Assembly (NCBI RefSeq): GCF_001623565.1
Contig: NZ_CP015196.1
Coordinates: 992,001 to 1,056,000 of the forward strand
Length of the DNA: 64,000 bases
Source of the DNA: Streptococcus marmotae
GTDB taxonomy: Bacteria; Bacillota; Bacilli; Lactobacillales; Streptococcaceae
Direction of reading: 5' to 3'
The notes below the pieces were generated by a model, which made no database searches, was not told the DNA's origin, and worked only from the letters and a program-made list of their open reading frames with translations. A program made the position numbers and the translations under genes. Below, piece by piece: positions 45,272-59,595 of the stretch. The first letter of the stretch is position 1. Every line of letters begins with the position of its first letter.

Positions 45272-45452
45272 CAATGTTTGACCTTGTCCTGCCACAATAA
45301 GTACCTACTTCTTTTTTATTTGATATATTTATCACAAATTATACTATACCAAAAAATTGGGCAAAATGTAAGGGTTTTTATAAAGAAAATACAGCTTGCA
45401 AATCACTCTGTTTTAGGTCTAATAAAAAACAAGTAATAATAGGAGGGATGAT

Positions 45453-46706
45453 ATGAAAAAAAGAGAAATTTTTGACCAAGTGGTCAAGATAATGCGGACT
45501 GATTCAGCGACTAAAAAGGATATCATTGGGGCAGATCCAGAAATGTATCGTCAGAAGATATCAGACGACATGTCAGAAGAGGAGTTTCTGTATCACATGC
45601 ATTGTTACCTTGCAAGTTTTGGCATTCTTTCCCATGTGTCCTTCTTCAAGAAGAATCGCAAAGCACTCGCAGTTCGTCTTAAGCGCCAAGGAGATATGCT
45701 CTATGTAGTGGAAGCAGATCCTGCGACCAATCTTCAAAAAGGAGATAAGATTATTGCACTTGACGGTTGCGATATTTCAACTCTGTACCAAGAACATCGA
45801 GCCTATTTTACGAGTCCTACTGAGGAACGCCAAGCACAGGAATGGAAATATTTTGTCCATAAGGCTGACAGACTCACAGTAATAAGGGCAAATCGGAAAG
45901 AGGAGATTCAACTGCAAGAAGTGGAGCAGGCGACGGAAGACAGTTTTGAAGTGAAGCAGTTACAGCCTGATCTTGTCTACCTTAAAATGGAGAATTTTTG
46001 GAATGAGGAAAAAATAGGAGCCCTTTACCAAGAAGCAGCTCCCTTACTAGAACAAGCTACCTACCTCATCATTGATGTCCGTGTCAATCATGGAGGCTCA
46101 GATTCTCTCTACTTCCCCTTAATCAAATACGCTTTACCAGAAGGGACCAGTCTTGCAGAAATTGATTTATCAGGATCAGGTATGGAAGTTCTCTACACAG
46201 AGAGAAATGTTGATTTGCGTTTAGCTCTATTTCAAGAAGATTTGAAAGATGAGCATTTATCAGAAGAAAGTCGCCAGTTCTTGCTGGAGTTTATTGACGA
46301 ATTACAGACTAATCGTGGCAAGGGTTATGTTGTTCATAAGGAGGATGACTCCGATAGAGAGTATTTTGCTGGGATTGTAGGTACTGCTAAGTCAGAGAAA
46401 ATTTTTGTATTATCAGATGTAGAGTGTGGTTCCTCTGGAGATAATTTTGTTCAGATAATGAAAGAGTTGCCTAAGGTGATGGTACTTGGTAGACCGACTA
46501 TGGGTATTTTGGATTACTCTAATTGCTGCTTCGTAGATTTTGATGACTACCAATTCATGTTTCCAACCTCACGTGATCTTGATCTTGATTTGGGAAAAGG
46601 CATGACAGATAAGGGGGTAGAACCAGATGTATTCGTTCCCTGGACTCCTGAACACTTAGAGCGTGATGTGGACTTGGAAGAATGTTTGAACTTGTGTGTA
46701 ACATAA
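45453..46706 (+). CDS. S41-type peptidase-like protein without a signal peptide
   Basis: 417 aa. A PDZ-like segment (LQKGDKIIALDG at about residues 98-109) precedes an S41/tail-specific protease core: YLKMENFW, LIIDVRVNHGGSDSLYFPL, then VLSDVECGSSGDNFVQIMK, where the second Ser is the likely nucleophile, and GRPTMGILDYSN. No signal peptide or membrane helix, unusual for C-terminal processing proteases, so it is probably cytosolic. AGGAGGGATG before the ATG. Monocistronic with its own terminator. Substrate unknown. Confidence 0.78.
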   Translation: MKKREIFDQVVKIMRTDSATKKDIIGADPEMYRQKISDDMSEEEFLYHMHCYLASFGILSHVSFFKKNRKALAVRLKRQGDMLYVVEADPATNLQKGDKIIALDGCDISTLYQEHRAYFTSPTEERQAQEWKYFVHKADRLTVIRANRKEEIQLQEVEQATEDSFEVKQLQPDLVYLKMENFWNEEKIGALYQEAAPLLEQATYLIIDVRVNHGGSDSLYFPLIKYALPEGTSLAEIDLSGSGMEVLYTERNVDLRLALFQEDLKDEHLSEESRQFLLEFIDELQTNRGKGYVVHKEDDSDREYFAGIVGTAKSEKIFVLSDVECGSSGDNFVQIMKELPKVMVLGRPTMGILDYSNCCFVDFDDYQFMFPTSRDLDLDLGKGMTDKGVEPDVFVPWTPEHLERDVDLEECLNLCVT

Positions 46707-46709
46707 TAA

Positions 46710-46760
46710 AAAGACTAAGAGTCTTGGTACCTTCAAGTTGCCAAGATTCTTAGTCTTTTG
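46710..46760 (+). terminator. Terminator after the S41 gene
   Basis: AAAGACTAAGAGTCTTGG (46710-46727) pairs with CCAAGATTCTTAGTCTTT (46741-46758) with one mismatch; A-run left and T-run right make it usable in both directions for the converging LOG gene. Confidence 0.85.
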
Positions 46761-46768
46761 TAAATGGA

Positions 46769-47341
46769 TTAAGTCTTGTTCCGATACTCACGCGCTGCCG
46801 GTGGTTGATAGCTTGCAATAAAGTGTTCGATTTGTTCTAAATCATCTGAGAAGAGTGTTTTTTCTCGATCTTCTAATGTCAAAAATCCTGCGCTAACCAT
46901 GTTATCAAAGAATTGTTCCAAGGCCTGATAGTAGCCTGCAATAGTAAAGAGGATGCAGGGTTTGTCGTTTTTTCCAATCCTTGCCCATGAGATAACTTCG
47001 CTGATTTCTTCTAAAGTACCAGGGCCACCAGGCAGTGCGATAAACGCGTCCGCCTCTTGTATCAAGGCCAATTTACGTTCAGACATGGTTTCAACTGTCC
47101 GTAGTTCTGAGAGATGAGGATGGGCGAGTTCACGATCTTTGAGAAATTCTGGAATGATACCAATGACTTGCCCACCGTGTGCTAGGACCGTATCTGCAAT
47201 CAAGCCCATGAGTCCAGTATTGCCACCGCCGTAGACCAACGTATGGCCACTTTCTGCAATCCATTTGCCAAGGGCAATCGTTCCTTCTTGATAGCTTGGA
47301 TTTTCTCCTAAACTTGCTCCACAGTAAACGGTTATATTCAT
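46769..47341 (-). CDS. LOG-family nucleotide phosphoribohydrolase (TIGR00730)
   Basis: 190-aa Rossmann-fold protein. The family motif PGGxGTxxE is LPGGPGTLEEISE (about residues 103-115) and the nucleotide loop is YGGGNTGLMGLIAD near residue 37. LOG proteins split nucleoside 5'-monophosphates, in plants and some bacteria those of cytokinins; the bacterial substrate here is unknown, perhaps house-cleaning of nucleotides. Its start overlaps the stop of the MazG-like gene by four bases, and both work on nucleotides, so the pair may be functionally linked. Confidence 0.85.
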   Translation of the reverse strand: MNITVYCGASLGENPSYQEGTIALGKWIAESGHTLVYGGGNTGLMGLIADTVLAHGGQVIGIIPEFLKDRELAHPHLSELRTVETMSERKLALIQEADAFIALPGGPGTLEEISEVISWARIGKNDKPCILFTIAGYYQALEQFFDNMVSAGFLTLEDREKTLFSDDLEQIEHFIASYQPPAAREYRNKT

Positions 47342-47658
47342 TGTCCTTTAAACCTTTCTTCTAACTTTTCCTTATGGCTTGTCATGATGCCCTCAAGCGA
47401 AATCTGGTAGATATCTGCGATAATAAACAGATTATCTAAGACATCGCCTAGTTCCTCACGGATGTGGAGGAGATTTTCTTTCTGGTTGCTAATGGGTTCA
47501 TCGGGGCGATCCCGTCCAATCTCCATTTTCCGAATCGCCTGTGCTAGCTCTCCTACCTCTTCACAGAGAAAATTAGCCCGAATAAAAGGATTGTAGGCAT
47601 ACCAACCACGCTCTTTGTAAAAACGACTGACCCAATCTTGGTAGTTACGAATGTCCAT
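47338..47658 (-). CDS. MazG-like nucleotide pyrophosphohydrolase
   Basis: 106 aa, all-alpha NTP pyrophosphatase family. The metal-binding helix pair is recognisable: FLCEEVGELAQAIRKME (ExxE) and IREELGDVLDNLFIIAD (ExxD). Such small single-domain enzymes hydrolyse non-canonical NTPs (house-cleaning). TTAGGAGA precedes the ATG. First gene of a two-gene operon with the LOG-family hydrolase. It is the last gene before the IS-bounded block. Confidence 0.85.
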   Translation of the reverse strand: MDIRNYQDWVSRFYKERGWYAYNPFIRANFLCEEVGELAQAIRKMEIGRDRPDEPISNQKENLLHIREELGDVLDNLFIIADIYQISLEGIMTSHKEKLEERFKGQ

Positions 47659-47801
47659 GTTTGTCTCCTAATGATACTTTTTAGTATTATAGCAGTTTCT
47701 CGAAGGTTTGACTAGGATTGATAGTTTTTATAGTTTAAAGAAGCAAATAGAAAATAAGTTGAGAAAGGCTTATAGCAGTCAAAATAATCTGTTCAAAGTA
47801 A

Positions 47802-48418
47802 GAACCTATATTCACAAAAGATGTTAAACTAAAGGTATGACACGAAAAGCATATGGTACTGATTTAACCAATCAAGAATAGGGAAAACTTGAACCTTGTT
47901 TCTCAAATCACCGTACCTATAAATGGTCTAAACAAACTCGTGAATGCGACTTTGTACATCACCAAAACGAGCTGTCAATGGCGTATACTCTCCCATGACT
48001 TGCCTCCAATCTATGCCATCATTGATTCTCAAAGCGTGAAAACAACAGATGTCGCAAAGGAGCGTGGCATTGATGATGGTAAAAAAGTCAAAGGAAAAAA
48101 ACGCATATCGTTATTGATACCATGGGGAATTTCCTGGATGTTGTGATTCGTGTAGCCAATCTTCATGGACCGACCTCAGGGATATTATAAAGTGATAGCT
48201 CAAGAGTTCCAATGTCCAGTAGATATTTTTGAAGAAATTAACGGAAGCTGGCACATCATTCCCCTACGCTAGGTTATTGGCGGACTTTCTCTTGGTTGAA
48301 TTACTCTAGACGATTGGCTAAGGATGTTGAAAAATCAGTATCTTCAGAGGTCGCTTTTGTGTAATTATGACACATTAGTCGGATTTTAAGTATCTTATGA
48401 TGTTGTGAATATAGGTTT
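47802..48418 (+). mobile_element. IS5-like element remnant, left flank of the island
   Basis: Terminal inverted repeats AACCTATATTCACAA (from 47803) and TTGTGAATATAGGTT (48403-48417) bound about 617 bases, shorter than the roughly 0.85-kb full element expected. The same repeat ends and transposase occur inverted at 58881. Target duplications were not evident. Confidence 0.85.
47837..48364 (+). pseudogene. IS5-family transposase, degraded
   Basis: Begins MTRKAYGTDLTNQE and hits a stop; pieces in other frames keep IDSQSVKTTDVAKERG (DDE-region start) and the C-terminal part ending SSEVAFV. Internal deletions and several stops and shifts make it inactive. Confidence 0.85.
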
Positions 48419-48527
48419 TAATAGTCTGCAAGTTTCCGAAAAGGATGATTTTTGTTCATCATTTTGATGTGAGGTATTTTTTATACAATAGATTCAAAAT
48501 GAAACACAATTTAATAATATATTAAAA

Positions 48528-48634
48528 ATTGTTTTATTTTAAAAAAATCGTTCCAAATAAAAACAATCAAAATATTTAACATCTTAATATTATGATAGTC
48601 TCATGCTAATATAGATTTTGTAAAAACGTTTACA
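48528..48634 (+). promoter_or_regulatory. Control region of the SLC13-type permease
   Basis: An inverted repeat ATTGTTTTATTT (48528-48539) / AAATAAAAACAAT (48555-48567) resembles sequence between the regulator and the kinase gene (52649-52674). A cre-like site TAAAAACGTTTACA (48621-48634) matches the CcpA consensus at all but one fixed position, 46 bases before the start codon, fitting carbon catabolite repression. Confidence 0.5.
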
Positions 48635-48679
48635 AAAAATAAAAACTGTCCTATATACAGGAACAAAAAGGAGAATACT

Positions 48680-49957
48680 ATGACATTACAAATGATTCTT
48701 GCTCTCAGTATTTTGGTGTTGATGATTGTCATGATTATGTCTGACAAGTTTGCATTTGGAGCTCCGCCAATTTTTGCCTGCTTGCTATTGGTTGCGACAG
48801 GACTATCTACTGTTCAAGAAGCCTTTGCTGGTTTTATAAATCCTAGCGTTGTTATGGTTGCAGGGTTTATGGTAGTAATGGCAGCGTTGATGAAAACAAG
48901 TTTCATTGCTAAAGTGCAGACAACGATGACTAGCTTAGTAAATAAGGGTGGATATAAGAGTTATATTCTACTGCTCGTTGTTGTTATGCTTGGAGCGAGT
49001 CTAGCTGGTATGGGGTCGACAGGCTACTATGTTTTGATTCTATCTTTAGTATCAACAATTCCTTACAATAAGAATTTACCCACTTCTAAGTTGATGATGC
49101 CTCTTGGATTTGCGACTAACCATCCAATCGTGCCAATCAATGTAGCACTAACATATGGTCTGACAGTAGGTGTCCTTGAAACAGCAGGCTTTTTAGAAGG
49201 TGTTCCAATGGTGAGATTTGCGATTGTTCATTTTATTCTGTCGCTTGCTTTCCTAGCTTGGAGTATTATTGCTTACAAATTATTACCAGACCACGAGATT
49301 ACTGACACAGACGAATCTATTAGTGGTCCAGAAATTGCTGTAACAATGATGAACCCAATTCAAGAAAAAATTACAATTGTAATGTTTGTTATCAGCGTTG
49401 TTGGTATGATGTTAATGAATCAATTAGGGAATTTGGCATATGTAATCCCTGGTCTTGCTGCTGCTGTTATTTTATTTGTAGGTGCATTGGATTTTCGTTC
49501 CGTACGAGATAATATGGGAGCACCTGTTATTCTGATGATGGCTGGAGTTATAGGTGTAGCAGATGCTTTAGGAAACACTGGTTTTACTGCTTTGGTTGGA
49601 GATTGGGTAGCGAATGCGATTGGTACAAGTCTCCCTCCGTTTCTTCTTATCTTGTTGTTTGTTTTCTTGACTAGTACAAGTGCTACCTTTACAGGTTCAA
49701 ACATGGGGTCAGTATTTATCTTTGCTCCTATTGCTATTGCGACCTGTATGAGTCTTGGGCTCAGCCCTCTTGCCGCTGCTGTAGCGGTTACTATTTCAGG
49801 TTGGAATGGTGGTTATATGCCAGTTGATGGTATGCCAGCTATGATTCTAGGTATGGGAAATTATAAACTGCCTGAATTTTGGAAGTACTCGGTTCCAATG
49901 TATTTAATCCGAATTATTGCCCTTACCGCTGGCTCAGTAATCATGTTTCCACTTTAA
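48680..49957 (+). CDS. SLC13 / CitMHS-like anion permease
   Basis: 425-aa membrane protein with about 11-12 helices of the ion transporter superfamily (SLC13/ArsB-NhaD). Two homologous halves are visible with the re-entrant Ser/Thr-rich segments GMGSTGYYVLIL and TSTSATFTGSNMGS. Such carriers move di- and tricarboxylates or other organic acids with Na+ or H+. By position in the IS-bounded block and cre control, it is likely the uptake system for the acid sugar used by the kinase operon at 52774. AAAAGGAG precedes the ATG. Followed by a 59-nt hairpin terminator. Confidence 0.8.
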   Translation: MTLQMILALSILVLMIVMIMSDKFAFGAPPIFACLLLVATGLSTVQEAFAGFINPSVVMVAGFMVVMAALMKTSFIAKVQTTMTSLVNKGGYKSYILLLVVVMLGASLAGMGSTGYYVLILSLVSTIPYNKNLPTSKLMMPLGFATNHPIVPINVALTYGLTVGVLETAGFLEGVPMVRFAIVHFILSLAFLAWSIIAYKLLPDHEITDTDESISGPEIAVTMMNPIQEKITIVMFVISVVGMMLMNQLGNLAYVIPGLAAAVILFVGALDFRSVRDNMGAPVILMMAGVIGVADALGNTGFTALVGDWVANAIGTSLPPFLLILLFVFLTSTSATFTGSNMGSVFIFAPIAIATCMSLGLSPLAAAVAVTISGWNGGYMPVDGMPAMILGMGNYKLPEFWKYSVPMYLIRIIALTAGSVIMFPL

Positions 49958-49999
49958 AATATAAAAAGTTGTTGTTGCATTGTTCAAAAAATTGGACAG

Positions 50000-50058
50000 T
50001 AAATCATAAAAAGGATTCAGTTCTGTATTATGCAGGACCGAATCCTTTTTATGATTTA
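50000..50058 (+). terminator. Terminator after the SLC13-type permease
   Basis: 19-bp perfect stem: TAAATCATAAAAAGGATTC (50000-50018) and its complement (50040-50058). The loop pairs further (GTTCTG/CAGGAC), giving an almost complete 59-nt hairpin. Confidence 0.8.
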
Positions 50059-50166
50059 TGTGCCTTTAAGCTAAGTATCGCTCCGTAAGGTGCGATGCAA
50101 ATAAACCACCCGCTACGCGGGTGCGCATCAGATGTTATGCAAAAAATCTCTAAAGGCGATACTCAT

Positions 50167-50480
50167 ATGGCACTCAGGCACATAGTTTATCACATACAAA
50201 GTGGATGTGTTCTATCACATTGTGTTTACTCCTAAATATAGACAAAAAATAATATAGAAGTAGTTTAGAGGAGATATTTCGCTGATTATGCAGTTAAATT
50301 ATAGAAGAATATCTGCTGCCAGATTATGTTCATATGCTAGTGAGCATTCCACTACGGGTAAGTGTATCAAGTTTCATGGGATATTTAACAGTTAAAAGTG
50401 CCTTAATGATGTTTGATAAACACGCCAATTTAAAATATAAATTTGAGAATCGTCATTTTACTAGAAAAATCAGACAAAAA
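50167..50480 (+). pseudogene. IS200-like (Y1) transposase remnant
   Basis: Frames broken by stops and shifts keep AHSLSHTKW-like HIVYHIQSG, LLPDYVHMLVSIP (HUH-like region, one His replaced by Tyr) and SSFMGYLTVKSALMMFDKHANLKYKFENRHF, the usual C-terminal half of IS200 TnpA. The tail is missing. A CCCGC/GCGGG hairpin just upstream (50107-50120) may be part of the element's end. Confidence 0.8.
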
Positions 50481-50499
50481 ATTAAAATATTTCCAGTTA

Positions 50500-50538
50500 A
50501 TACCCAACGCCCTTTGACGGAGTCAGGGCGTTGGGTAT
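50500..50538. terminator. Perfect 14-bp hairpin after the IS200 remnant
   Basis: ATACCCAACGCCCT (50500-50513) pairs with AGGGCGTTGGGTAT (50525-50538), 11-base loop. IS200-type elements often carry such structures near their ends. Confidence 0.7.
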
Positions 50539-50589
50539 ACGCGTAAAACGCTCTATTAAAGAGGCAGTGAACTATTCTTCGCTAGCCTT

Positions 50590-50821
50590 ATTTCTAAACT
50601 TTCACAATTCTCAATTGTGAAAGCTAGTCAATATGTGGGATATTAACAGTCCAGTAGACTGTTAATACTTGAGCCTAGAAATTAGAAAGCGAAATTAACA
50701 AAATTGATTTCTACGAAATCACGATTGAGTCCTACTCCCCATGATTTGCAGAATAAAAAAACGAAGATATTCAGATATATGGTGTAGGATTTCTTACTGA
50801 TAAAGCGAGGATGTTATTTGC
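50590..50821. repeat. Dispersed intergenic repeats
   Basis: CTTTCACAATT / AATTGTGAAAG (50599-50623), ATTAACAGTC / GACTGTTAAT with loop CAGTA (50642-50666), then the GAGCCTAGAAAT...GAAAGCGAAATT block (about 50668-50740) also present at 11788-11870. No gene. Confidence 0.75.
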
Positions 50822-52606
50822 TTAATTATATTTTATATATCTCCATAATGTTGTTCTGCTGATGCCCAGTTGCTTAGCTGTTTTTGTTTGATTTCCCTTA
50901 TTTTGCTCTAAAGTCGCAAGGATAATATCTCTACTATAGTCAAAAAGTGTCTTTTCTTCAATCAAATGAGGTATGATAGGTATCTCCGATTGAATCATAG
51001 TCAATGAATTGATATGACGGCGCTCTTCTTGTAAGAGTTCGGAAACTTGATGCTCAGAAATATAGTATGATTGAGTGCTAAGAACTAATTTTGTAATGAC
51101 TCGTTCAAGTTGAGAGAGATTTTCAGACCAATGGAAATTTTGTAGACGTTCCAGCGCTTCAGGTTCTAATCCAATTACTTGAGAGTTACATTCAATTTTA
51201 ATCTTATTTAGAAAAAGAGTTATGATGCTAGTGAATTCATTATGCCGTTCAGCTAGTGATGGTGAGTAAAGACTGGCACAATTAAGTTCACTTACAATGT
51301 GTTCAAAAATTCCGAACGGATCTCCTTTGATTTTGGTATTGTAGGTCATCAGAAGATTGTTGTGTCTAAGAAAATTGCTATCTTTAATAAATTGTATCAA
51401 TTGCTGGCAGATAGGGATATTTAGCTTATCTATATGTGTTAAAAGTAAAGTGTTATCAGCTTCAAGTAATAAACCATTATTATTATTTGATAGATATTTC
51501 CAAAGACGTTCATTTAATTGGTGGCAGTCGATACTGATTAGATTCTGCTTATGCTGTTTCATTTGTAAAAAGGCGGAATAGGCTAGGCTGGTTTTTGCGG
51601 TTCCGCTTTCTCCAAAAATTAGCATTGTATTATAATGTTTTAGGAGATTCTTCGTCAACTCTCTATTTTTTTCTTGTATGAATGAGGTTGATAGTAATTT
51701 TTTTGAAATAGCTTCTTCGGCTTCTTTTTGAGAAATGAAATGAACACCGAATCGTTTCCCTGTGATAGGTGGTGTATTGACTTTGATATCACAGTGCCAA
51801 TATGAATTATTATCGGTATAGAAACTATGTACTTTAATTTGATAAGTCTGTCCCTTATGTGTATGATAAAACTGGTTTTGTTTTTCTAGATTTTTTTTGC
51901 TGAGAAGTAGTTTGATAGATTTTTGCAGGCTTGCTTCTACATTTGAAATAATTACATCACCTTGTTGCGAAAGAATTAAAACTTGTTGCGATTGATTTTG
52001 TATAATCTGATGTAGTAGATAATTATCCTTTTTTATTGTATTGAGATATTTTACAAATGTAATTGCTTGTTGATAAGCATTTGTTATACTTTCGACACCA
52101 GAAGTAATAAGTAGGGTATTCATTGATTTTTTGAGTGCAGTCTGGTTAGTAATTGCATCACAGAGAACTAAATCAAAATGTTCTCGTTTAAGGTCGTCTA
52201 GTACTAAGTCAGCTTGTTCTGGACTTTCCAAGGTTATAATTTTGATATTATATTGCAAAACATCACAAATAAGGTGTGCGGTTTTAGTGATACTTGAGTA
52301 AGCAACAATGGCGATATGTTGAGTATAGTTATTTGCTAGTTTGATTGCACTCAAAATGTCATAAATAGAGATGGAAACATCAAAGACTGGGATACTAGCT
52401 ACCTCTTGAATCATGCTCGCAGTCCCTCCTCTAGAAATAATGGCATCGTAATCCTTATGAGCAAGTGATTGAGCTAATTGCTGACCTTCCGATAAGTCGG
52501 CGGTATAGATGTCTATTGCAATCTCTTCAAAATCTTTTGCAGTAATAAACATTGAGTGGTTTAACTCTTCGTAGGGAGCGATTCCTAATAATCTAATTTG
52601 TTTCAT
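50822..52606 (-). CDS. PrpR-like / NtrC-type regulator lacking the sigma-54 contact motif
   Basis: 594 aa. Residues 1 to about 170 resemble the PrpR_N sensor (AYEE-type start, ISRGGTASMIQ, PVFDVSISIYDIL). A linker with PAS-like features follows (LILSQQGDVIISN). The AAA+ part has Walker A GESGTAKTS near residue 330, but the GAFTGA loop is missing, and the Walker B position reads LLLTHID where active enhancer-binding proteins have FLDE. The C-terminus has a Fis-type helix-turn-helix (NQTKTAKQLGISRTTLWRYIK). It is divergent from the catabolic operon and its probable regulator. Start at 52606 with GAGGA before it; the longer frame from 52684 is unsupported. Confidence 0.82.
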   Translation of the reverse strand: MKQIRLLGIAPYEELNHSMFITAKDFEEIAIDIYTADLSEGQQLAQSLAHKDYDAIISRGGTASMIQEVASIPVFDVSISIYDILSAIKLANNYTQHIAIVAYSSITKTAHLICDVLQYNIKIITLESPEQADLVLDDLKREHFDLVLCDAITNQTALKKSMNTLLITSGVESITNAYQQAITFVKYLNTIKKDNYLLHQIIQNQSQQVLILSQQGDVIISNVEASLQKSIKLLLSKKNLEKQNQFYHTHKGQTYQIKVHSFYTDNNSYWHCDIKVNTPPITGKRFGVHFISQKEAEEAISKKLLSTSFIQEKNRELTKNLLKHYNTMLIFGESGTAKTSLAYSAFLQMKQHKQNLISIDCHQLNERLWKYLSNNNNGLLLEADNTLLLTHIDKLNIPICQQLIQFIKDSNFLRHNNLLMTYNTKIKGDPFGIFEHIVSELNCASLYSPSLAERHNEFTSIITLFLNKIKIECNSQVIGLEPEALERLQNFHWSENLSQLERVITKLVLSTQSYYISEHQVSELLQEERRHINSLTMIQSEIPIIPHLIEEKTLFDYSRDIILATLEQNKGNQTKTAKQLGISRTTLWRYIKYN

Positions 52607-52648
52607 TTGCATCCTCTTTGTTTCATTTATAGACAATTTTACAACATT

Positions 52649-52691
52649 TTGTTTTAGCTGTCCAATAAAAACAAAGTGTTTCAAAAAGAAA
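52649..52691. promoter_or_regulatory. Candidate operator between regulator and catabolic operon
   Basis: TTGTTTT (52649-52655) and TAAAAACAA (52666-52674) form an inverted pair resembling the one upstream of the permease gene at 48528; GTTTC-AAAAA-GAAAC (52677-52691) lies next to it. Assignment to the PrpR-like regulator is by position only. Confidence 0.35.
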
Positions 52692-52773
52692 CCGTTATTT
52701 TTGTTCTATTCTTTAGTAATGCAGCTAATTAGTATAGAATATGTATTATAAAAATATCTGGGAGGTACAAGGA

Positions 52774-54003
52774 ATGGTAAGGTTATTGGTTTTAGCCGAT
52801 GATTTTACAGGGGCCCTAGATACAGGAGTTCAGTTTTCGAACTTGGGTGTTACGACCCAAGTGACTACAGACATTCAAATTGATTTAGAACAGGTTGATG
52901 TAGATGTATTAGTTATTGATACTGAAAGCCGTCATTTATCATTTGAGGCTTCCTATCAGGTGGTTACAAGAATTGCTACTAGAGTAAAAGAACTAGAGAT
53001 TCCGTACTTCTATAAGAAAGTTGATTCGGCATTGCGTGGGAATATTAGCAGCGAAATTCAAGCAATTTTAGATGTTTATACAGATAGAACAATTGCGTTT
53101 GTTCCAGCATATCCGGCTATTGGTAGAACTGTTTCATCTGGTTGTTTATACATTGATGGAATTCCAGTTTCTGAGAGCATTTTTGCTGATGATCCGTATG
53201 AGCCAGTGATTGAAAGTAATATCAGAAAACGACTGCAAATAGAGGCTAATATTCACGCTACATTATTTACTGGTAGAAATAGTCAACTTGGAAGTCGGTT
53301 AATCATTTTTGATGCGAAAACTGAAGAAGATATGTCTGAAATTGGCCTAAAATTAGCCAAATTCAAGCAATTATCCGTCACGGTAGGCTGTGCCGGTTTT
53401 GCTAAAGTATTGGCGGAGACTATTTTTGAAACGAATGAAAGACCAAATGTGTCTCTAACAAAGCCACTAGTTGTGATATGTGGGTCGGTTAATCAGGTTA
53501 CACAAAATCAAGTACTATTTGCCCAGCAAAAGGGATTCAAGCGATATTCCCTAGTTCGTGAACAATTATTAAATGATGATTATTGGACTACATCTAAGGG
53601 TATATCAGATATTAGCGGTTATCTGCGAGAACTAGAAGCAGATAAGCTGGCTATATTTGAAACATTTGGCGCAGTAAATACCTTTTATGATACTGATAAA
53701 GCCGCTGATATAAGATTTAAAATAGGGCAGTCTTTGGGTCAGTTAACGGAGAGGTTGTTGGAGAATGGAGTAGAGAGAACTTTTCTATTTACAGGAGGAG
53801 ATACGCTTTACCAGTCAATGCAAGTGCTGGGAATATCACACGTTATTCCGCTTATAGAAATTAGTCCAGGTATCGTTTTATCTGAGTTGGTCTGGAAGGA
53901 ATGTAGGGTTCCTGTCATCACTAAGTCTGGTGGATTTGGTTATAAAGAATTATTTGTAGATATTGTCGAGACAGTTCAAGTCGAGAAGGAGAAAAGATGT
54001 TAG
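52774..54003 (+). CDS. DUF1537 four-carbon acid sugar kinase
   Basis: 409-aa kinase of the family shown to phosphorylate D-threonate, L-threonate/erythronate derivatives and similar acid sugars at O4 or O3. N-terminal substrate domain: LVLADDFTGALDTGVQF and FYKKVDSALRGN; C-terminal nucleotide domain: VICGSVNQVTQNQ, ERTFLFTGGDTLYQSM and ITKSGGFG. Start at 52774 by GGAGGT eight bases upstream; the frame from 52741 lacks one. First gene of a six-gene operon; the next stop/start overlap by seven bases. With the PdxA-like dehydrogenase, a D-threonate-type route to DHAP is the best fit. Confidence 0.88.
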   Translation: MVRLLVLADDFTGALDTGVQFSNLGVTTQVTTDIQIDLEQVDVDVLVIDTESRHLSFEASYQVVTRIATRVKELEIPYFYKKVDSALRGNISSEIQAILDVYTDRTIAFVPAYPAIGRTVSSGCLYIDGIPVSESIFADDPYEPVIESNIRKRLQIEANIHATLFTGRNSQLGSRLIIFDAKTEEDMSEIGLKLAKFKQLSVTVGCAGFAKVLAETIFETNERPNVSLTKPLVVICGSVNQVTQNQVLFAQQKGFKRYSLVREQLLNDDYWTTSKGISDISGYLRELEADKLAIFETFGAVNTFYDTDKAADIRFKIGQSLGQLTERLLENGVERTFLFTGGDTLYQSMQVLGISHVIPLIEISPGIVLSELVWKECRVPVITKSGGFGYKELFVDIVETVQVEKEKRC

Positions 54004-55154
54004 TAGATTATAGTTTAAAAATGCCTAAAAATGTTTTTGCAGGAGAGAATGCCTTGGAACAACTTGAGACACTTATTCCTCAAAATGTAAAAAAAGTAGC
54101 TATTTTTACAGATAAGGGAATATTAAGTGTTGGATTAGTTGATAGAGTAGCGGAAATGTTGGATAAAAGACAATTGTCTTATTGTATTTTATCGGAGATA
54201 CCTGCTGAACCGAGTTGTCAGCAAGCACAAGATGTTGTTGATATATTTAAAAAAACAGAGTCAAATTTTATTATTGCCGTAGGTGGTGGAAGCGTTATGG
54301 ATGTTGCTAAGTTAGCATCTGTCTTAGCAACAGATGTCTATACGGTGAAAGACTTACTTATAGATCCTCTTATCGCTACAAAACAAGTGCCTTCTCTAAT
54401 GATTCCGACAACTGCCGGTACAGGTTCAGAAGCCACTCCCAATAGTATTGTAGGTGTTCCTGAAAAAGGTTTAAAGGTTGGTATTGTAAATCCAGAGATG
54501 ATTGCAGATTATGTGATTTTAGATGCTCGATTGATTAAGAATCTACCCATTAAAATTGCAGCTGCAACAGGTGTTGATGCCATGTGTCATGCTATTGAAT
54601 GTTTTACATCTAATAAGCGTAATCCATTTAGTAATACCTTTGCCCTAGAAGCTTTTGATCTTATTTTTAATAATATTATTGAAGCTTGCACCAATCCGGA
54701 AGCGCTAGAGGCGAAGTCAAAGATGTTACTGGGTTCTTTTTATGCAGGTGTGGCAATAACAGCGTCAGGTACTACAGGAATTCATGCTTTGTCATATCCT
54801 TTGGGGGGAAAATATCACATTGCTCACGGGGTATCGAATGCAATTTTATTGATGCCTGTTATGCGTTTCAATGAGCCGGTTATTAAACCGTATTTTGCAC
54901 AAGCTTATGATCGAGTGGTAAGAGATAGGGAAACTAATCTATCTATAGAAGAAAAATCTGAATATATTTTGAATGAACTTGGGCGTATTGTAAAAGTACT
55001 AGATATTCCGACAAGTCTAAAGGAATTTAATGTTCCAATAGAGGACTTAGATGACTTGGTAGAAGCTGGTATGCAGGTTGAACGCCTCCTAGTTAATAAT
55101 ATGCGTAAAATTACAGCAGAGGATGCTAGAGCGATTTATAAAGAAGTGTTATGA
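53997..55154 (+). CDS. Iron-containing (group III) alcohol dehydrogenase
   Basis: 385-aa NAD(P)-dependent oxidoreductase. The cofactor loop is VGGGSVMDVAKLAS (about residues 95-108), followed by PTTAGTGSEATPNSI and the metal-binding block GVDAMCHAIECFTS with the later His pair in HALSYPLGGKYHIAHG. It could oxidise a hydroxyl of the sugar acid or reduce/oxidise an aldehyde released by the neighbouring lyase; sequence alone cannot decide. AAGGAG precedes the ATG, which overlaps the kinase gene by seven bases. Eleven bases separate it from the lyase gene. Confidence 0.88.
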   Translation: MLVDYSLKMPKNVFAGENALEQLETLIPQNVKKVAIFTDKGILSVGLVDRVAEMLDKRQLSYCILSEIPAEPSCQQAQDVVDIFKKTESNFIIAVGGGSVMDVAKLASVLATDVYTVKDLLIDPLIATKQVPSLMIPTTAGTGSEATPNSIVGVPEKGLKVGIVNPEMIADYVILDARLIKNLPIKIAAATGVDAMCHAIECFTSNKRNPFSNTFALEAFDLIFNNIIEACTNPEALEAKSKMLLGSFYAGVAITASGTTGIHALSYPLGGKYHIAHGVSNAILLMPVMRFNEPVIKPYFAQAYDRVVRDRETNLSIEEKSEYILNELGRIVKVLDIPTSLKEFNVPIEDLDDLVEAGMQVERLLVNNMRKITAEDARAIYKEVL

Positions 55155-55165
55155 GGAGTGTATAA

Positions 55166-56062
55166 ATGTTAGAAGTGAAAGGAATTATTGCCCCTATCAT
55201 CACCCCTATGTATGATGATGAAAGTATTAATTTTGATGAATTTCGTAATCAGATTGATCGTTTAATTGCTAGTGGTATTCACGGAATTTTTGTTTTTGGT
55301 ACAAATGGGGAGTCATATATTTTATCAGAAAATGAAAAATTACAAGTTATACAGGTAGCTGTTGAACATACAGCAGGACGTGTACCTGTGTATGTTGGTA
55401 CAGGCTTGAATGGGACTAGAGGGACTATTCGTTTTTCGAAGAAAGTTGAAGAACTAGGAGTAGATGCGCTCTCCATTATTACTCCTTCATTTGCTGTAGC
55501 ATCTCAAGATGAGTTGTATGAACATTTTAAATTGGTAGCAGAAGCTGTTGATTTACCAATCATTCTGTATAATATTCCAGCTCGAACTGGAAATATGCTT
55601 GCTCCGGAAACAGTAGGAAAACTGAGTGAGATTTCAAATATTGTAGGTATTAAAGATTCAAGTGGAAATTTTGATACAATTCTTCAGTATATTGAGCATA
55701 CCCGAAACAATGAACAATTTGTGGTTCTCTCAGGAAATGATTCGCTGATTTTGTGGACATTACTGGCAGGTGGAGCAGGAGCTATTGCTGCATGTTCTAA
55801 TGTATATCCTCTAACAATGGTACAGATATATGAACAGTTCATTGCTGGAGATATTCAAACGTCTCGCCAATATCAAGATAGTATCCGCTCTTTTAGAAAT
55901 TGTTTCCGATTTGGCAATCCTAACACGATAGTCAAATATGCTGTAGCGGAGTTAGGCTATCCAGTTGGTAAGGCGAGAGCGCCTTTTAATCATCTATCAG
56001 AAGAAGGTTTTGAGGCACTACGTGAAGTTATTGCTGAAAATAAGAATCAAGGAATGCAGTAG
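55166..56062 (+). CDS. DapA/NanA-family lyase or synthase
   Basis: 298-aa TIM-barrel class I aldolase. The Schiff-base Lys is in VGIKDSSGN at about residue 163, the catalytic Tyr in ILYNIPARTGN near 135, and the carboxylate-binding loop is FGTNGESYILS near 46. The family includes dihydrodipicolinate synthase, N-acetylneuraminate lyase and 2-keto-3-deoxy sugar-acid aldolases. Since lysine synthesis genes are absent here and the context is sugar-acid breakdown, a lyase yielding pyruvate plus an aldehyde is more likely. GAGGAG precedes the ATG. Confidence 0.87.
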   Translation: MLEVKGIIAPIITPMYDDESINFDEFRNQIDRLIASGIHGIFVFGTNGESYILSENEKLQVIQVAVEHTAGRVPVYVGTGLNGTRGTIRFSKKVEELGVDALSIITPSFAVASQDELYEHFKLVAEAVDLPIILYNIPARTGNMLAPETVGKLSEISNIVGIKDSSGNFDTILQYIEHTRNNEQFVVLSGNDSLILWTLLAGGAGAIAACSNVYPLTMVQIYEQFIAGDIQTSRQYQDSIRSFRNCFRFGNPNTIVKYAVAELGYPVGKARAPFNHLSEEGFEALREVIAENKNQGMQ

Positions 56063-56073
56063 GGAGATGTCAC

Positions 56074-57120
56074 ATGAAAAAAATTATTGGAATTACTTTG
56101 GGGGATCCTGCAGGTATTGGTCCTGAGATTTCTTTAAAGGCTTTTGCAAAAAAGGAACTCTATAATCATTGTCGACCGCTTCTCGTAGGCGATAAATCAG
56201 TCGTGGAATATTATCTAGATAGACACCCTGAAATTGGGTTGCATCTTAATGTTATTGATTTAGCCGCAGATGGCAAATATACTCATGGAATAGTTGATAT
56301 GATTGATTTGGGAATAGTTGACATGAACCATTTTGAGATTGGGAAAGTTTCTTCAGTTGGGGGAGATGCAGCTTTCCAATATGTCAAAAAAGTGATTGAA
56401 CTAGCAATGAGTCAAGAAATCGATGCTACTGTTACGAATCCTTTAAATAAGGAGGCGATGAATAGTGCTGGTCATCATTATGCAGGCCATACGGAGATTT
56501 ATGCGGATTTAACAGGGACGGATAAGTATACTATGATGCTTGCTGATGGGAATCTTCGAGTTGTTCATGTATCGACCCACGTTTCTCTACGTGAAGCATG
56601 TGACCGTGCTACGAAAGAAAGAGTATTAGATGTTATTCGTATTGCAAATACCGCATGTAAAAATCTTGGAATTGGAAATCCACGGATTGCTGTAGCTGGA
56701 CTTAATCCTCATTGTGGAGAGAATGGACTTTTTGGCACAGAGGAGATTGAACAGATTAATCCAGCAGTTGAAGCTGCTAAATTAGAAGGGATTAATGTGT
56801 GCGGTTCTTTACCTGCTGATACGCTATTTTCAAAAGCTAATGGTGGCATGTATGATATTGTTGTTGCTATGTATCATGATCAAGGGCACATTCCGCTTAA
56901 ACTTCTAGGGTTTGTGTATGATCAAGCGATTGGTTCATGGAAAGCGGTTCAAGGTGTCAATATCACCCTTGGTTTACCAATTATTCGAACATCTGTTGAT
57001 CATGGTACAGCCTTTGACCAAGCAGGTCATTGGACTGCTAGTGAAATTAGTCTTGAAAATGCTATTGATTATGCAATTCGATTAGCTGAGCATTCGCCGA
57101 AGAAGGTAGAGAAGCGATGA
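56074..57120 (+). CDS. PdxA2-like 4-phospho-sugar-acid dehydrogenase
   Basis: 348-aa metal- and NAD-dependent dehydrogenase of the PdxA family. N-terminal GITLGDPAGIGPEI, metal-binding His in GHTEIYADL and in AMYHDQGHIPLKLLGF, and the substrate loop in NLTLGLP-like NITLGLPIIRTS. True PdxA makes pyridoxine, a route streptococci lack; the PdxA2 type oxidises 4-phospho-D-threonate/erythronate, which loses CO2 to give dihydroxyacetone phosphate. The DUF1537 kinase in the same operon supports PdxA2. Its stop overlaps the YhcH start by four bases. GGGAGA precedes the ATG. Confidence 0.88.
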   Translation: MKKIIGITLGDPAGIGPEISLKAFAKKELYNHCRPLLVGDKSVVEYYLDRHPEIGLHLNVIDLAADGKYTHGIVDMIDLGIVDMNHFEIGKVSSVGGDAAFQYVKKVIELAMSQEIDATVTNPLNKEAMNSAGHHYAGHTEIYADLTGTDKYTMMLADGNLRVVHVSTHVSLREACDRATKERVLDVIRIANTACKNLGIGNPRIAVAGLNPHCGENGLFGTEEIEQINPAVEAAKLEGINVCGSLPADTLFSKANGGMYDIVVAMYHDQGHIPLKLLGFVYDQAIGSWKAVQGVNITLGLPIIRTSVDHGTAFDQAGHWTASEISLENAIDYAIRLAEHSPKKVEKR

Positions 57121-57563
57121 TTATTGAACGCATAGACTGTTTAGTAAAATACCAAGCACTTCTAAAAAACATAGAAGCTGCATTAGCAGAGCTTGATTTA
57201 AGAAAGAATCATTTTGAAGAAGGAGTGCGTTATTCTTTTAATGGTGGTTTTATCTTTTTTCAAACAGGTATAACCAAATTCAGAAAGGAAGCGAAATTTG
57301 AGACACATCGGAAGTATATTGATGTTCAAGTGATTTTAGAAGGTTCGGAGTACTTAGCTCTAGCAGACCCCTCTCAATTGAATACAATAATATCATACGA
57401 TGCTAACAAAGATGTTGAAAAATATGAGGGGGAAATCCGAAACTATATAAGAATTGATAAAGGAATGGCTTATGTATGCTTTCCATGGGATGCGCATCAA
57501 GCAGTCTTCCATTTGCAGGAACCCAGTTATTTTAAAAAAGCAGTTATTAAATTAGAAATTTGA
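57117..57563 (+). CDS. YhcH/YjgK/YiaL-family protein (possible sugar-acid anomerase)
   Basis: 148-aa cupin-like beta-barrel protein. Metal-site blocks: AKFETHRKYIDVQVILEGSEYL and CFPWDAHQAVFH. Family members include NanQ (YhcH), which speeds opening of cyclic sialic acid, and YiaL of a keto-sugar pathway. In this operon it may open or mutarotate a cyclic sugar acid before the lyase. Start codon overlaps the PdxA2 stop (ATGA). Eighteen bases separate it from the Asp-box gene. Confidence 0.85.
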   Translation: MIIERIDCLVKYQALLKNIEAALAELDLRKNHFEEGVRYSFNGGFIFFQTGITKFRKEAKFETHRKYIDVQVILEGSEYLALADPSQLNTIISYDANKDVEKYEGEIRNYIRIDKGMAYVCFPWDAHQAVFHLQEPSYFKKAVIKLEI

Positions 57564-57581
57564 CAAAGAGAGGTAGAAAAA

Positions 57582-58751
57582 ATGGTAAAACTTCCTAGTG
57601 TACGTATCTCAGAACCGAATGGTATTGTTTATCGGGATGAGTTTTTGGGTGTGGATTTCGGTTTAATCCCAACAGGAGGTAAAGCTACTGCTCATGCCCC
57701 AGCGTTAATTGAGACAATAGATGGTGGTTTGCTCTGTGCTTGGTTTGCAGGAACTTTTGAAGGAAGTGGAGATATCTCCATTGCAGTTTCAAAACTAGAT
57801 CCTAGAACACAGATATGGTCAGTCCCTAAAATTGTTTCAAAAGGTCAGAATCGAAGTGAGCAAAATCCAGCCTTCTTTCGTGCTCCAGATAATCAAATAT
57901 GGCTTATTTATACATCACAGTTAAGTAGGCAGGAGGGAAAAGATAATATGCAATTCACTTCTGTTATTATGGTACAAAAATCTTCGGATGAAGGAATTAG
58001 CTGGAATGAGCCTGAAGTATTATTCCCAGAAGAGGGAACATTTTCTCGGCAAGCTATACAGGTTTTAAGCAATGGTCGCTGGATTTTTGCAACATGGATT
58101 TGTGAGGATTCTCCAGAAGGTTTGACGAACGATCCAACGGAATTTAGAGTGTCCGATGATGCAGGGAAAACATGGGGAATTGTCCGTATGCCTAATAGTA
58201 ATGGACGAGTACATGCAAACTTAATTGAGGTAGAGTCAGGACATTTAGTAGCATTTATGAGAAGTCGCTTTGCAGACAATGTATATATTAGTGAATCGTA
58301 TGATTTTGGGGATACTTGGACAGAACCTGTGAGATCTTCATTGCCAAATAATAATGCAAGTATCAGTGCTATCAGACTTCAATCTGGAGAAATCGCATTG
58401 GCATACAATGATAATGCAGCGCGCAATCCAGAATTTGGTAAAGTATCATGGCCAGGTCTTCGTAATCCAGTGGCTGTTTCTGTTACAGAAGATTTTGGAA
58501 AAACATGGCCGATAGGCAGAATTTTTGAGACTGCAGAAGGCTTTATTGGAGTTGAAAATAAGACAAACAATTCCCAATATGAGTATCCAACGCTCTATCA
58601 AACGAAAGATGGATTATTACATTTGGTATATGCTTATAAAAATCGTTTATGTGTAAAATATGTTCGTTTCTCAGTATCTGATCTTTTTGGTGCAAAGCGT
58701 GAAACTGAAGGGATTTATAATCCAACCTCAGGAGCTGGTATCGAAAAGTAG
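57582..58751 (+). CDS. Cytosolic Asp-box (BNR/sialidase-fold) protein
   Basis: 389-aa beta-propeller of the sialidase superfamily (BNR_2). Four Asp boxes at residues about 134-141 (SSDEGISW), 191-198 (SDDAGKTW), 239-246 (SYDFGDTW) and 302-309 (TEDFGKTW). The FRIP motif of classical secreted sialidases is absent, as are a signal peptide, anchor and carbohydrate-binding module, so it should be cytosolic and may not be a sialidase. It is the last gene of the catabolic operon, AGAGAGG before the ATG. Likely role: an intracellular glycosidase or lyase-like enzyme acting on an imported acid-sugar conjugate. No terminator is obvious. Confidence 0.8.
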   Translation: MVKLPSVRISEPNGIVYRDEFLGVDFGLIPTGGKATAHAPALIETIDGGLLCAWFAGTFEGSGDISIAVSKLDPRTQIWSVPKIVSKGQNRSEQNPAFFRAPDNQIWLIYTSQLSRQEGKDNMQFTSVIMVQKSSDEGISWNEPEVLFPEEGTFSRQAIQVLSNGRWIFATWICEDSPEGLTNDPTEFRVSDDAGKTWGIVRMPNSNGRVHANLIEVESGHLVAFMRSRFADNVYISESYDFGDTWTEPVRSSLPNNNASISAIRLQSGEIALAYNDNAARNPEFGKVSWPGLRNPVAVSVTEDFGKTWPIGRIFETAEGFIGVENKTNNSQYEYPTLYQTKDGLLHLVYAYKNRLCVKYVRFSVSDLFGAKRETEGIYNPTSGAGIEK

Positions 58752-58880
58752 TTCCAATGTAAGTTAGTGATTGGTAAATTTTTATTACAATGTACAAAGA
58801 AACTAGAAATACAAGAAGCCTAAAAATATCATTTCACAGGGTTTATATTGAAAAAGTTTATGTTGAATATCTTTAAACTT
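58752..58880. other. AT-rich spacer after the catabolic operon
   Basis: No gene or clear terminator recognised; joins directly to the inverted IS5-like remnant. Confidence 0.5.
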
Positions 58881-59370
58881 AGAACCTGTATTCACAACAT
58901 TATAAAGGTTCTTAAAATCCGACCAATATGTGATAATTAAACAAAAGTGACCTCTGAAGATACGGACTTTTCAACATCCTTGGTTAATCGTCGTCTAGAG
59001 TGGTTCAACCAAGAGAAAGTCCGACTGACAACCTCGCGATTGGGAATGATTTTCCAGCGTTCGTTGATTTTTTCAGAAATATCGACTGGACATTGGAGCT
59101 CCCCAGTCATCATCTCCTCAAAACTTTTGCGATAACCAGTATCTGTCAAAAAGCCTTGATTGTTGGAAGTTGCGCTATCACTTGATAAGTGACCAAAATC
59201 CTTGATTTTGTATCATGAAGCTTGGCTGTATGCACCGCCACATCAAGAAGATTACACATCATGTCAACAACGATGGGCGCTTTCTCTCTTTGATTTTTTA
59301 CCACCATCAATCCCACATTCTTCTGTAGCATTCGTTGTTTTCATGCTTTGAGAATCAATGATGGCGTAGG
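58881..59370 (-). mobile_element. IS5-like element remnant, right flank of the island (inverted copy)
   Basis: Begins with AGAACCTGTATTCACAAC (58881-58898), the same terminal repeat as at 47802, and carries transposase sequence on the minus strand: C-terminus (58937-59149, ending SSEVTFV) and middle part (59146-59331, VVDMMCNLLDVAV). It breaks off near 59370, after the region coding for IDSQSMKTT; the other terminal repeat is missing. Confidence 0.82.
58937..59370 (-). pseudogene. IS5-family transposase, truncated
   Basis: Pieces in two minus-strand frames align in order with the remnant at 47837-48364 (LNHSRRRLTKDVEKSVSSEV near the end). The 5' third is gone and there is at least one frameshift around 59146. 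Confidence 0.82.
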
Positions 59371-59437
59371 CTTGAGAGATGCTCTACCAGCTTTTCATAT
59401 ATCCACTACAGTTGACAAAGGACCTGAAACTATTAAA

Positions 59438-59466
59438 AATAGGAGCCTCACGACGAAGCTCCTATT
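59438..59466. terminator. Hairpin between IS remnant and rpmG
   Basis: AATAGGAGC (59438-59446) pairs with GCTCCTATT (59458-59466); followed on the plus strand by GCTTTTAAC. Could end transcription coming from the catabolic operon. Confidence 0.65.
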
Positions 59467-59595
59467 GCTTTTAACTTTCTGAATCAAAGTTTTGTTTTGG
59501 AATAGAAACTAATCCTCCAATCGATTTCAATTGGTATATCGTGAAAATTCACAAACAAAAACCCAGGAATAGTAGTTCCATGGGTTTTTAGTGTC

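What the first reader, a model, noticed from the sequence alone, without database searches (positions are those of the whole stretch)
47802..59370. IS-bounded island with an apparently undescribed acid-sugar catabolic system
Seen: a six-gene operon (DUF1537 kinase, Fe-ADH, DapA-family lyase, PdxA2-like dehydrogenase, YhcH-family protein, Asp-box protein without signal peptide), a divergent PrpR-like regulator and an SLC13-type permease, all between two IS remnants. Known: DUF1537 kinases with PdxA2 turn D-threonate/erythronate-type acids into DHAP; DapA-family lyases split 2-keto-3-deoxy acids to pyruvate plus an aldehyde; YhcH/NanQ opens cyclic sugar acids. Inferred: import of a conjugated acid sugar, cleavage by the Asp-box protein, ring opening by YhcH, lysis to pyruvate and a C4 fragment, conversion of that fragment to a C4 acid, phosphorylation and oxidation to DHAP. 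No described pathway known to me uses all these parts.
Basis: partly seen in the sequence, partly recalled or inferred. Interest (0 to 1): 0.88.

Follow-up and report, generated by a model that had tools for sequence, protein, structure and literature searches.

The report
Uncharacterised acid-sugar pathway on mobile island
A streptococcal genome carries a mobile gene cluster, with counterparts in about a fifth of complete E. coli genomes and in many plant-associated bacteria, that probably breaks a seven-carbon acid sugar down to pyruvate and a glycolysis intermediate; the enzyme types are known, but the route and its food molecule have not been tested.

Summary
In detail: six intact genes (52741-58751), a divergent PrpR-type regulator and an SLC13 permease lie between inverted IS remnants; the nearest relative fetched lacks them. 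Counterparts occur in Firmicutes, Pectobacterium/Brenneria, rhizobia and 1,044 of 5,426 complete E. coli genomes. E. coli CFT073 has the permease (70% identical), YhcH, Asp-box protein, aldolase and Fe-ADH, with kinase and dehydrogenase above curated D-threonate cut-offs; the window's own are below them. The aldolase keeps the arginine that in lysine-pathway DapA binds aspartate semialdehyde (59 of 62 aligned; the NanA-like protein of this genome lacks it), so its aldehyde product is probably a C4 semialdehyde acid. Best reading: 2-keto-3-deoxy-heptarate -> pyruvate + D-threuronate -> D-threonate -> 4-phosphate -> DHAP + CO2. Dha of plant rhamnogalacturonan-II fits by stereochemistry (inference). 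The Asp-box protein has the sialidase fold with two or three catalytic positions changed; its reaction is open. A Ca-ATPase or TerC gene lies within 1.3 kb in 31 of 59 permease-type loci, suggesting a metal-complexed substrate. The gene set is in print for E. coli without an assigned catabolic pathway. New variant of a known kind.

The parts
48011..48421 (+). left IS remnant (IS4/IS5-type; transposase piece 47889-48146)
   Evidence: inverted match to 58879-59369 (73-83%); DUF4096 E 4e-4, below cut-off
48680..49957 (+). SLC13/CitMHS permease, presumed importer
   Evidence: PF03600 84.5 bits (cut-off 31.9); 70% identical to the permease of the E. coli CFT073 cluster
50822..52684 (-). divergent PrpR_N-type regulator; likely start near 52606; no GAFTGA motif
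   Evidence: PF06506 158.5 bits; motif scan (467 aa of it, in L001) and sequence; start is inference from ortholog lengths
52741..54003 (+). DUF1537 four-carbon acid-sugar kinase, D-threonate-kinase-like; likely start near 52774 (inference)
   Evidence: best model NF047819 201 bits (cut-off 450 not met)
53997..55154 (+). iron-type alcohol dehydrogenase, proposed D-threuronate reductase
   Evidence: PF00465/PF25137; nearest model lactaldehyde reductase 242 bits (cut-off 523 not met)
55166..56062 (+). DapA-family pyruvate aldolase with Schiff-base Lys163 and DHDPS-type Arg140
56074..57120 (+). PdxA2-like dehydrogenase, proposed D-threonate-4-phosphate dehydrogenase giving DHAP + CO2
   Evidence: PF04166; relatives 4jqp, 2hi1, 6e85; NF002891 345 bits (cut-off 583 not met)
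57117..57563 (+). YhcH/NanQ-family protein, proposed hemiketal ring opener
   Evidence: PF04074 98 bits; NF040884 59 bits (cut-off 160 not met)
57582..58751 (+). cytoplasmic sialidase-fold (BNR_2, COG4692-like) protein with altered catalytic residues H38, E60, H211 beside kept R227, R294, Y335
58879..59369 (-). right IS remnant, inverted relative to the left one

Best explanation
The island encodes an import-and-catabolism route for a C7 2-keto-3-deoxy-aldaric acid or a small conjugate of it, most plausibly Dha (3-deoxy-D-lyxo-hept-2-ulosaric acid, a sugar of plant rhamnogalacturonan-II). Steps: (1) SLC13 permease imports the acid, perhaps with a divalent cation; (2) the sialidase-fold protein frees or rearranges it (reaction unknown); (3) YhcH opens the hemiketal (in other genomes a VOC protein may replace it); (4) the DapA-family aldolase cuts it to pyruvate and a C4 semialdehyde acid, D-threuronate; (5) Fe-ADH reduces this with NADH to D-threonate; (6) the DUF1537 kinase makes D-threonate 4-phosphate; (7) the PdxA2-like enzyme oxidises and decarboxylates it to DHAP and CO2, regenerating NADH. 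Shown here by sequence: gene content, conservation, replacement of whole sets, D-threonate-model matches of the E. coli relatives, the aldolase arginine. Inferred: every reaction, substrate identity and direction of step 5. The stated confidence is for steps 4-7; for Dha itself about 0.35.
For: Conserved unit: 56 of 73 loci hold all six families (loci were found through the Asp-box protein, so its own presence is by construction). Same permease (70%) with the same enzyme families in E. coli CFT073, whose kinase scores 533 bits on D-threonate kinase NF047819 (cut-off 450) and whose PdxA scores 682 on D-threonate-4-phosphate dehydrogenase NF002891 (cut-off 583). Replacement: the aldolase, Fe-ADH, kinase and PdxA of E. 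coli, Robertmurraya (L030), R. leguminosarum and Agrobacterium are only 25-48% identical to the window's, yet the four families stay together; Brenneria/Pectobacterium join an Asp-box gene of Streptococcus/Enterococcus/Trichococcus type (80-89%) to an E. coli-type aldolase, Fe-ADH and PdxA (62-77%), and three importer types (SLC13, SSS, ABC) feed the set. Fusion of kinase and PdxA in Caballeronia. Aldolase: Arg140 matches E. coli DapA Arg138, which binds aspartate semialdehyde (PMC4977564 and PMC3188589, passages); present in 59 of 62 aligned DapA-family proteins, and inside this genome present in the DapA beside aspartate-semialdehyde dehydrogenase but not in the NanA-like one beside a ROK kinase (neighbours named by eye from the sequence). 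The C7 2-keto-dicarboxylate alpha-ketopimelate, a deoxy analogue of Dha, inhibits Mtb DapA, occupies the pyruvate site and hydrogen-bonds the same arginine (PMC4977564, passages). Stereochemistry: retro-aldol of D-lyxo Dha gives D-threuronate, whose reduction gives D-threonate (own derivation). Ring openers look interchangeable: YhcH in 19, VOC in 30, both in 1, neither in 11 of 59 loci, Fisher p 8e-7 without correction for kinship. A 36% relative of the Asp-box protein is fused to a GH78 rhamnosidase beside an apiosidase in a Prevotella locus.
Against: The window's own kinase, PdxA and YhcH fall below the curated cut-offs of the specific models. The R. leguminosarum aldolase has Val and the Caballeronia one Lys at the arginine position, and human HOGA, which also releases an acidic aldehyde, has Asn there, so the residue is suggestive only. 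Partial clusters exist: S. sobrinus L008 has no permease, aldolase or Fe-ADH, Terribacillus/Virgibacillus L028, L036, L041 no recognised kinase or aldolase, L063 no permease or aldolase, L045 only Asp-box and YhcH, in 16-21 kb read. The Asp-box protein lacks the first arginine and the glutamate of sialidases, so a standard ulosonic-acid glycosidase is doubtful, and an SLC13 carrier is an odd importer for a glycoside. Among the neighbours scanned no secreted rhamnogalacturonan-II enzyme was seen beside a complete cluster; this was not searched systematically. The Pantoea stretch read has no DUF1537 kinase annotated, and the archaeal relative sits in another context. Nothing here names Dha directly.
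Confidence: 0.55

Rival explanations
1. Two-part substrate: the Asp-box protein splits a D-threonate conjugate; kinase and PdxA2 burn the threonate, while aldolase and Fe-ADH handle the other half (a 2-keto-3-deoxy acid giving pyruvate plus lactaldehyde or glycolaldehyde, reduced by Fe-ADH).
For: Fe-ADH is nearest to lactaldehyde reductase (242 bits, below cut-off); the R. leguminosarum locus has an importer annotated as oligopeptide/dipeptide ABC type, which could take a conjugate; some partial loci have kinase and PdxA with the Asp-box gene but no aldolase (L008, L063).
Against: The aldolase keeps the semialdehyde-binding arginine, not needed for neutral lactaldehyde; a C4-acid kinase that mostly travels with aldolase and Fe-ADH is simplest as one linear chain.
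Confidence: 0.15
2. Neutral route: a 3-deoxy-heptulosonate is cut to pyruvate plus threose or erythrose, which Fe-ADH oxidises to the C4 acid.
Against: The arginine argues for a carboxylated aldehyde; the best Fe-ADH model is an aldehyde reductase, and oxidation would need two NAD+-linked steps without a reducing partner (inference).
Confidence: 0.12
3. Sialic acid, KDN or Kdo salvage with accessory genes.
For: NanQ-type YhcH, DapA-superfamily lyase and sialidase fold together.
Against: A NanA-like lyase with a ROK kinase lies elsewhere in the genome (L090); N-acetylneuraminate lyase cut-offs not met by the cluster's aldolase; C4-acid enzymes would have no role; sialidase catalytic positions altered.
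Confidence: 0.05
4. Vitamin B6 or metabolite-repair role (4-hydroxythreonine phosphorylation and PdxA), as the E. coli report suggests for the kinase/PdxA pair.
For: The kinase STM0162 (DUF1537) can phosphorylate 4-hydroxy-L-threonine (PMC10971088, passages); PMC12928451 links the pair to pyridoxal phosphate.
Against: Importer, aldolase, Fe-ADH and ring opener have no place in repair; sporadic island distribution.
Confidence: 0.04

Closest known systems
E. coli BEN2908 region GR 6 / CFT073 nagE-glnS cluster (PMC12928451; L087)
   Same: SLC13, YhcH, Asp-box, DapA, Fe-ADH, DUF1537, PdxA
   Different: DeoR-type instead of PrpR-type regulator, TerC inside the cluster of CFT073; Asp-box protein and the four enzymes 25-46% identical to the window's; no catabolic pathway assigned in that paper's passages seen
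DtnK-PdxA2 D-threonate pathway (Zhang 2016, not held; seen only as cited in PMC10971088)
   Same: last two steps, kinase and decarboxylating dehydrogenase (PdxA2 role recalled)
   Different: there the C4 acid itself is taken up (recalled); here an aldolase and Fe-ADH appear to make it inside the cell
Glucarate/galactarate pathway (GarL-GarR-GarK, recalled)
   Same: logic: keto-deoxy-aldarate -> pyruvate + semialdehyde acid -> reduction -> kinase
   Different: C6 against proposed C7; other enzyme families; no sialidase-fold protein or PdxA
Sialic acid nan system
   Same: YhcH/NanQ ring opening, DapA-superfamily lyase, sialidase fold
   Different: no ManNAc enzymes in the cluster; aldolase has DHDPS-type arginine; sialidase-type residues changed
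GH143 Dha hydrolase of Bacteroides thetaiotaomicron (passage in PMC6811678)
   Same: acts on Dha in rhamnogalacturonan-II; PDB 5mqr/5mqs (recalled to be this enzyme) gives only E 0.1 with the Asp-box protein
   Different: described in the passage as a bimodular enzyme with a five-fold arrangement differing slightly from other sialidases; secreted (recalled)

Membership tests
GH33-type sialidase | sialidase beta-propeller fold | tested here: met
GH33-type sialidase | triad of arginines binding the carboxylate | tested here: not met
   R227 and probably R294 kept, first Arg of the RIP motif replaced by H38 in 64 of 64 aligned family members; catalytic roles recalled
GH33-type sialidase | Tyr nucleophile activated by Glu | tested here: not met
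   Y335 kept in 64 of 64; the Glu position is H211 in 63 of 64
D-threonate kinase DtnK (NF047819) | curated score 450 | tested here: not met
   window 201 bits; CFT073 relative 533
D-threonate 4-phosphate dehydrogenase (NF002891) | curated score 583 | tested here: not met
   window 345 bits; CFT073 relative 682; general pdxA model TIGR00557 met, 345 against 290
DHDPS (DapA, TIGR00674) | curated score 206 and active-site Lys, Tyr, Arg | tested here: met
   233.5 bits; K163, Y135, R140; the CFT073 relative misses the score, 190
DHDPS (DapA, TIGR00674) | lysine-biosynthesis role | tested here: inconclusive
   another DapA lies beside aspartate-semialdehyde dehydrogenase in this genome, so this one is probably not the lysine enzyme
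NanQ N-acetylneuraminate anomerase (NF040884) | curated score 160 | tested here: not met
   59 bits; wider family TIGR00022 met, 77 against 45.5
CitMHS/SLC13 permease | PF03600 cut-off | tested here: met
   84.5 against 31.9
DASS symporter (TIGR00785) | curated score 198.6 | tested here: not met
   53.2 bits
Sigma-54 activator of PrpR type | GAFTGA loop and RpoN in the genome | tested here: not met
   motif absent in the window protein; present in 2 of 48 PrpR-like ORFs of the loci; no PF04552 match in G000
Dha catabolic pathway | enzyme activity on Dha | not testable with these tools
   needs assay

The most novel reading that the evidence does not exclude
A first catabolic pathway for the plant-wall sugar Dha, taken up by an SLC13 permease as a calcium or manganese complex, with a dedicated metal pump (Ca2+ P-type ATPase or TerC) in the same cluster, and a sialidase-fold enzyme of new chemistry as the entry step; spread across Firmicutes and Proteobacteria, including about a fifth of complete E. 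coli genomes.
Probability: 0.25. Interest if true: 0.82.

Novelty: new variant of a known kind. Interest (0 to 1): 0.62.

Why it matters
If right, it assigns a function to a cluster matched in 1,044 of 5,426 complete E. coli genomes and, judged by the Asp-box match and the loci read, in enterococci, streptococci, bacilli, rhizobia and Pantoea; it says where a rare plant-wall sugar acid may go after polysaccharide degradation; it gives the widespread cytoplasmic 'exo-alpha-sialidase' annotation (BNR_2/COG4692) a testable, non-sialidase role; and it links sugar-acid uptake to metal export. Each step can be assayed with purified enzymes.

Tried and rejected
Sialic acid salvage and B6 repair were considered and rated low (see rivals). 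The roughly 900-aa companion was first guessed to be a glycoside hydrolase; it is a P-type Ca2+-ATPase. GH143 was looked for only through sequence and fold matches of the Asp-box protein: weak hit 5mqr/5mqs E 0.1, not among the 50 rows shown of each fold search, which is inconclusive. A search for DUF1537 in the order of the Prevotella locus (to see whether rhamnogalacturonan-II degraders carry the same enzymes) did not complete. Literature: nine searches on the cluster, its enzymes and the substrate gave no assigned catabolic pathway for this cluster in their listings; a tenth was about the arginine. Thiaville 2016 and Zhang 2016 are not held and were not read. Repeats upstream of the kinase gave nothing clear; promoter and terminator scans were at chance level (44 against 40.3, 5 against 5.7). 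The GH78-Asp-box fusion in Prevotella is a lead only: that domain has Gln at the H211 position.

Full report
What is there. They lie between two inverted remnants of one insertion sequence (48011-48421 and 58879-59369, 73-83% identical). G053, the same-genus genome with the most similar hisS (99% protein; 97% DNA), has about 2.2 kb between the flanking matches where the window has 14.2 kb (45390-59595). Among 59 same-genus genomes (own included) three hold a full-length Asp-box gene, one a 54-residue remnant and three only weak partial matches of 29-32%. The remnant genome, G036, keeps the permease (78%) and a Ca-ATPase (81% to the one of the Streptococcus orisasini locus L002), while the other cluster proteins gave no match at 1e-4 in the 19 kb read. 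Island GC is 0.367 against 0.411 for the window. The host is a Streptococcus judging by the named neighbours of its Asp-box protein.

How widespread. A genome-collection scan with the Asp-box protein gave 72 loci, among them Streptococcus, Enterococcus, Trichococcus, Paenibacillus, Bacillaceae, Lachnospiraceae/Lacrimispora, Brenneria and Pectobacterium. With the short own-genome locus 73 were tabulated, and 56 of 73 hold all six families (tblastn at 1e-5). Of the 17 others one is the short own locus, six are distant Asp-box relatives without the set, four are on short contigs or near contig ends, and six are truly partial: S. sobrinus L008, Terribacillus/Virgibacillus L028, L036 and L041, L045 and L063. 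A plasmid search found the protein in 316 of 72,556 records, mainly Rhizobium, Sinorhizobium, Pantoea and Agrobacterium. I read six of those 316: four show the Asp-box protein with DapA-type, Fe-ADH and PdxA genes (kinase annotated in two, fused to PdxA in one, none annotated in the Pantoea stretch), one (S. meliloti) is too sparsely annotated to tell, one (an archaeon) is different. E. coli CFT073 has the set between nagE and glnS, and 1,044 of 5,426 complete E. coli genomes match that stretch, 1,043 over at least 80% of it.

Why one pathway. Identities (ten loci plus window and five proteobacterial sets) show modular exchange. The Brenneria and Pectobacterium Asp-box genes are 80-89% identical to those of Streptococcus, Enterococcus and Trichococcus and nest among Firmicutes in the tree (30-row clade, support 99/97), yet their aldolase, Fe-ADH and PdxA are 62-77% identical to E. 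coli's (kinase 43-45%). E. coli has the Firmicute-type permease (70-77%; 53-59% to the VOC-type loci) with a Pantoea-like Asp-box protein (82%). Pantoea and Caballeronia use an SSS symporter, R. leguminosarum and Agrobacterium an ABC importer. Across these swaps the aldolase, Fe-ADH, kinase and PdxA families mostly stay together although individual members fall to 25-48% identity with the window's; the kinase and PdxA are one protein in Caballeronia. That is what a linear pathway with interchangeable parts would give.

Chemistry. The E. coli kinase and dehydrogenase pass the curated D-threonate models (533 against 450; 682 against 583); the window's score lower (201 and 345), so the same substrate is likely through the shared permease but not proven. 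The aldolase keeps the Arg that in E. coli DapA (Arg138) binds aspartate semialdehyde (PMC4977564, PMC3188589, passages) in 59 of 62 aligned rows; the exceptions are Caballeronia (Lys), R. leguminosarum (Val) and a second Brenneria protein (Leu) besides that cluster's own aldolase. The same genome supplies a control: its DapA beside aspartate-semialdehyde dehydrogenase has the Arg, its NanA-like protein beside a ROK kinase does not (these neighbours are named by eye). Human HOGA, which also makes an acidic aldehyde, has Asn there, so the residue is suggestive, not decisive. Alpha-ketopimelate, a C7 2-keto-dicarboxylate, is an inhibitor found in the pyruvate site of Mtb DapA. Retro-aldol cleavage of D-lyxo Dha between C3 and C4 gives D-threuronate; reduction gives D-threonate because the parent D-tartaric acid is C2-symmetric (own derivation). 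The Fe-ADH and PdxA steps then balance NADH. The scheme is the C7 counterpart of the glucarate pathway (recalled).

Companions. Of 59 loci with Asp-box and SLC13 genes, 31 hold a metal exporter (25 P-type Ca-ATPase, 6 TerC), each within 1.3 kb of the outermost core gene; 19 have YhcH, 30 a VOC protein, one both, 11 neither. Kinship is not corrected for: the ATPase loci are mostly enterococci, streptococci and Clostridia relatives. E. coli CFT073 has TerC inside the cluster. None of the four SSS or ABC loci read shows an annotated metal exporter (plasmid gene tables are incomplete). The window itself has none in the island; its genome has one Ca-ATPase-type gene elsewhere. A BD-FAE-type esterase gene is in nine of 73 loci, in or beside the cluster (domain checked in L012 only). 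This fits uptake of a metal-complexed, perhaps esterified or lactonised acid (inference; CitMHS metal-citrate transport is recalled).

Novelty. The gene set is in print for E. coli BEN2908 GR 6, listed under sugar metabolism as uncharacterised, with kinase and PdxA tied to pyridoxal phosphate synthesis (PMC12928451, passages). Nine searches found no assigned catabolic pathway (listed under Tried and rejected), but two key papers are not held. The parts are known kinds in a combination without an assigned pathway: a new variant of a known kind. The pathway logic is fairly well supported, the substrate name is a hypothesis.

Noticed in passing
window 50822-52684: PrpR-type regulator has no GAFTGA loop and the genome has no recognised RpoN; of 48 PrpR-like ORFs in the loci only the two Trichococcus ones keep the motif, so most of these regulators seem to have left sigma-54 control.
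   Followed up: partly
window 49958-50822: Between permease and regulator lies what looks by eye like an IS200-type transposase remnant (sequence printed).
   Followed up: no
L068 7184-11791: Prevotella protein fusing GH78 rhamnosidase, BNR_2 and AP_endonuc_2 domains beside apiosidase, GH95, GH88 and an esterase.
   Followed up: partly
L079 4998-7304: Caballeronia gene fusing the DUF1537 kinase to PdxA, which suggests that these two act in sequence.
   Followed up: partly
L095 7200-12848: Same-genus genome G036 keeps permease and Ca-ATPase with only a 53-54-residue Asp-box stub between them: a decayed copy that includes the metal pump.
   Followed up: yes
L090 (G000 C1 about 1069154): NanA-like lyase with a ROK-type kinase about 20 kb downstream of the island, a separate probable sialic-acid locus (named by eye).
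   Followed up: partly
L012 1863-2834 and eight other loci: BD-FAE-type esterase gene within or next to the cluster in Paenibacillus and Bacillaceae.
   Followed up: partly
L008, L028, L036, L041, L063: Partial clusters: Asp-box and PdxA genes without a recognised aldolase; either other enzymes stand in or the pathway is split.
   Followed up: no
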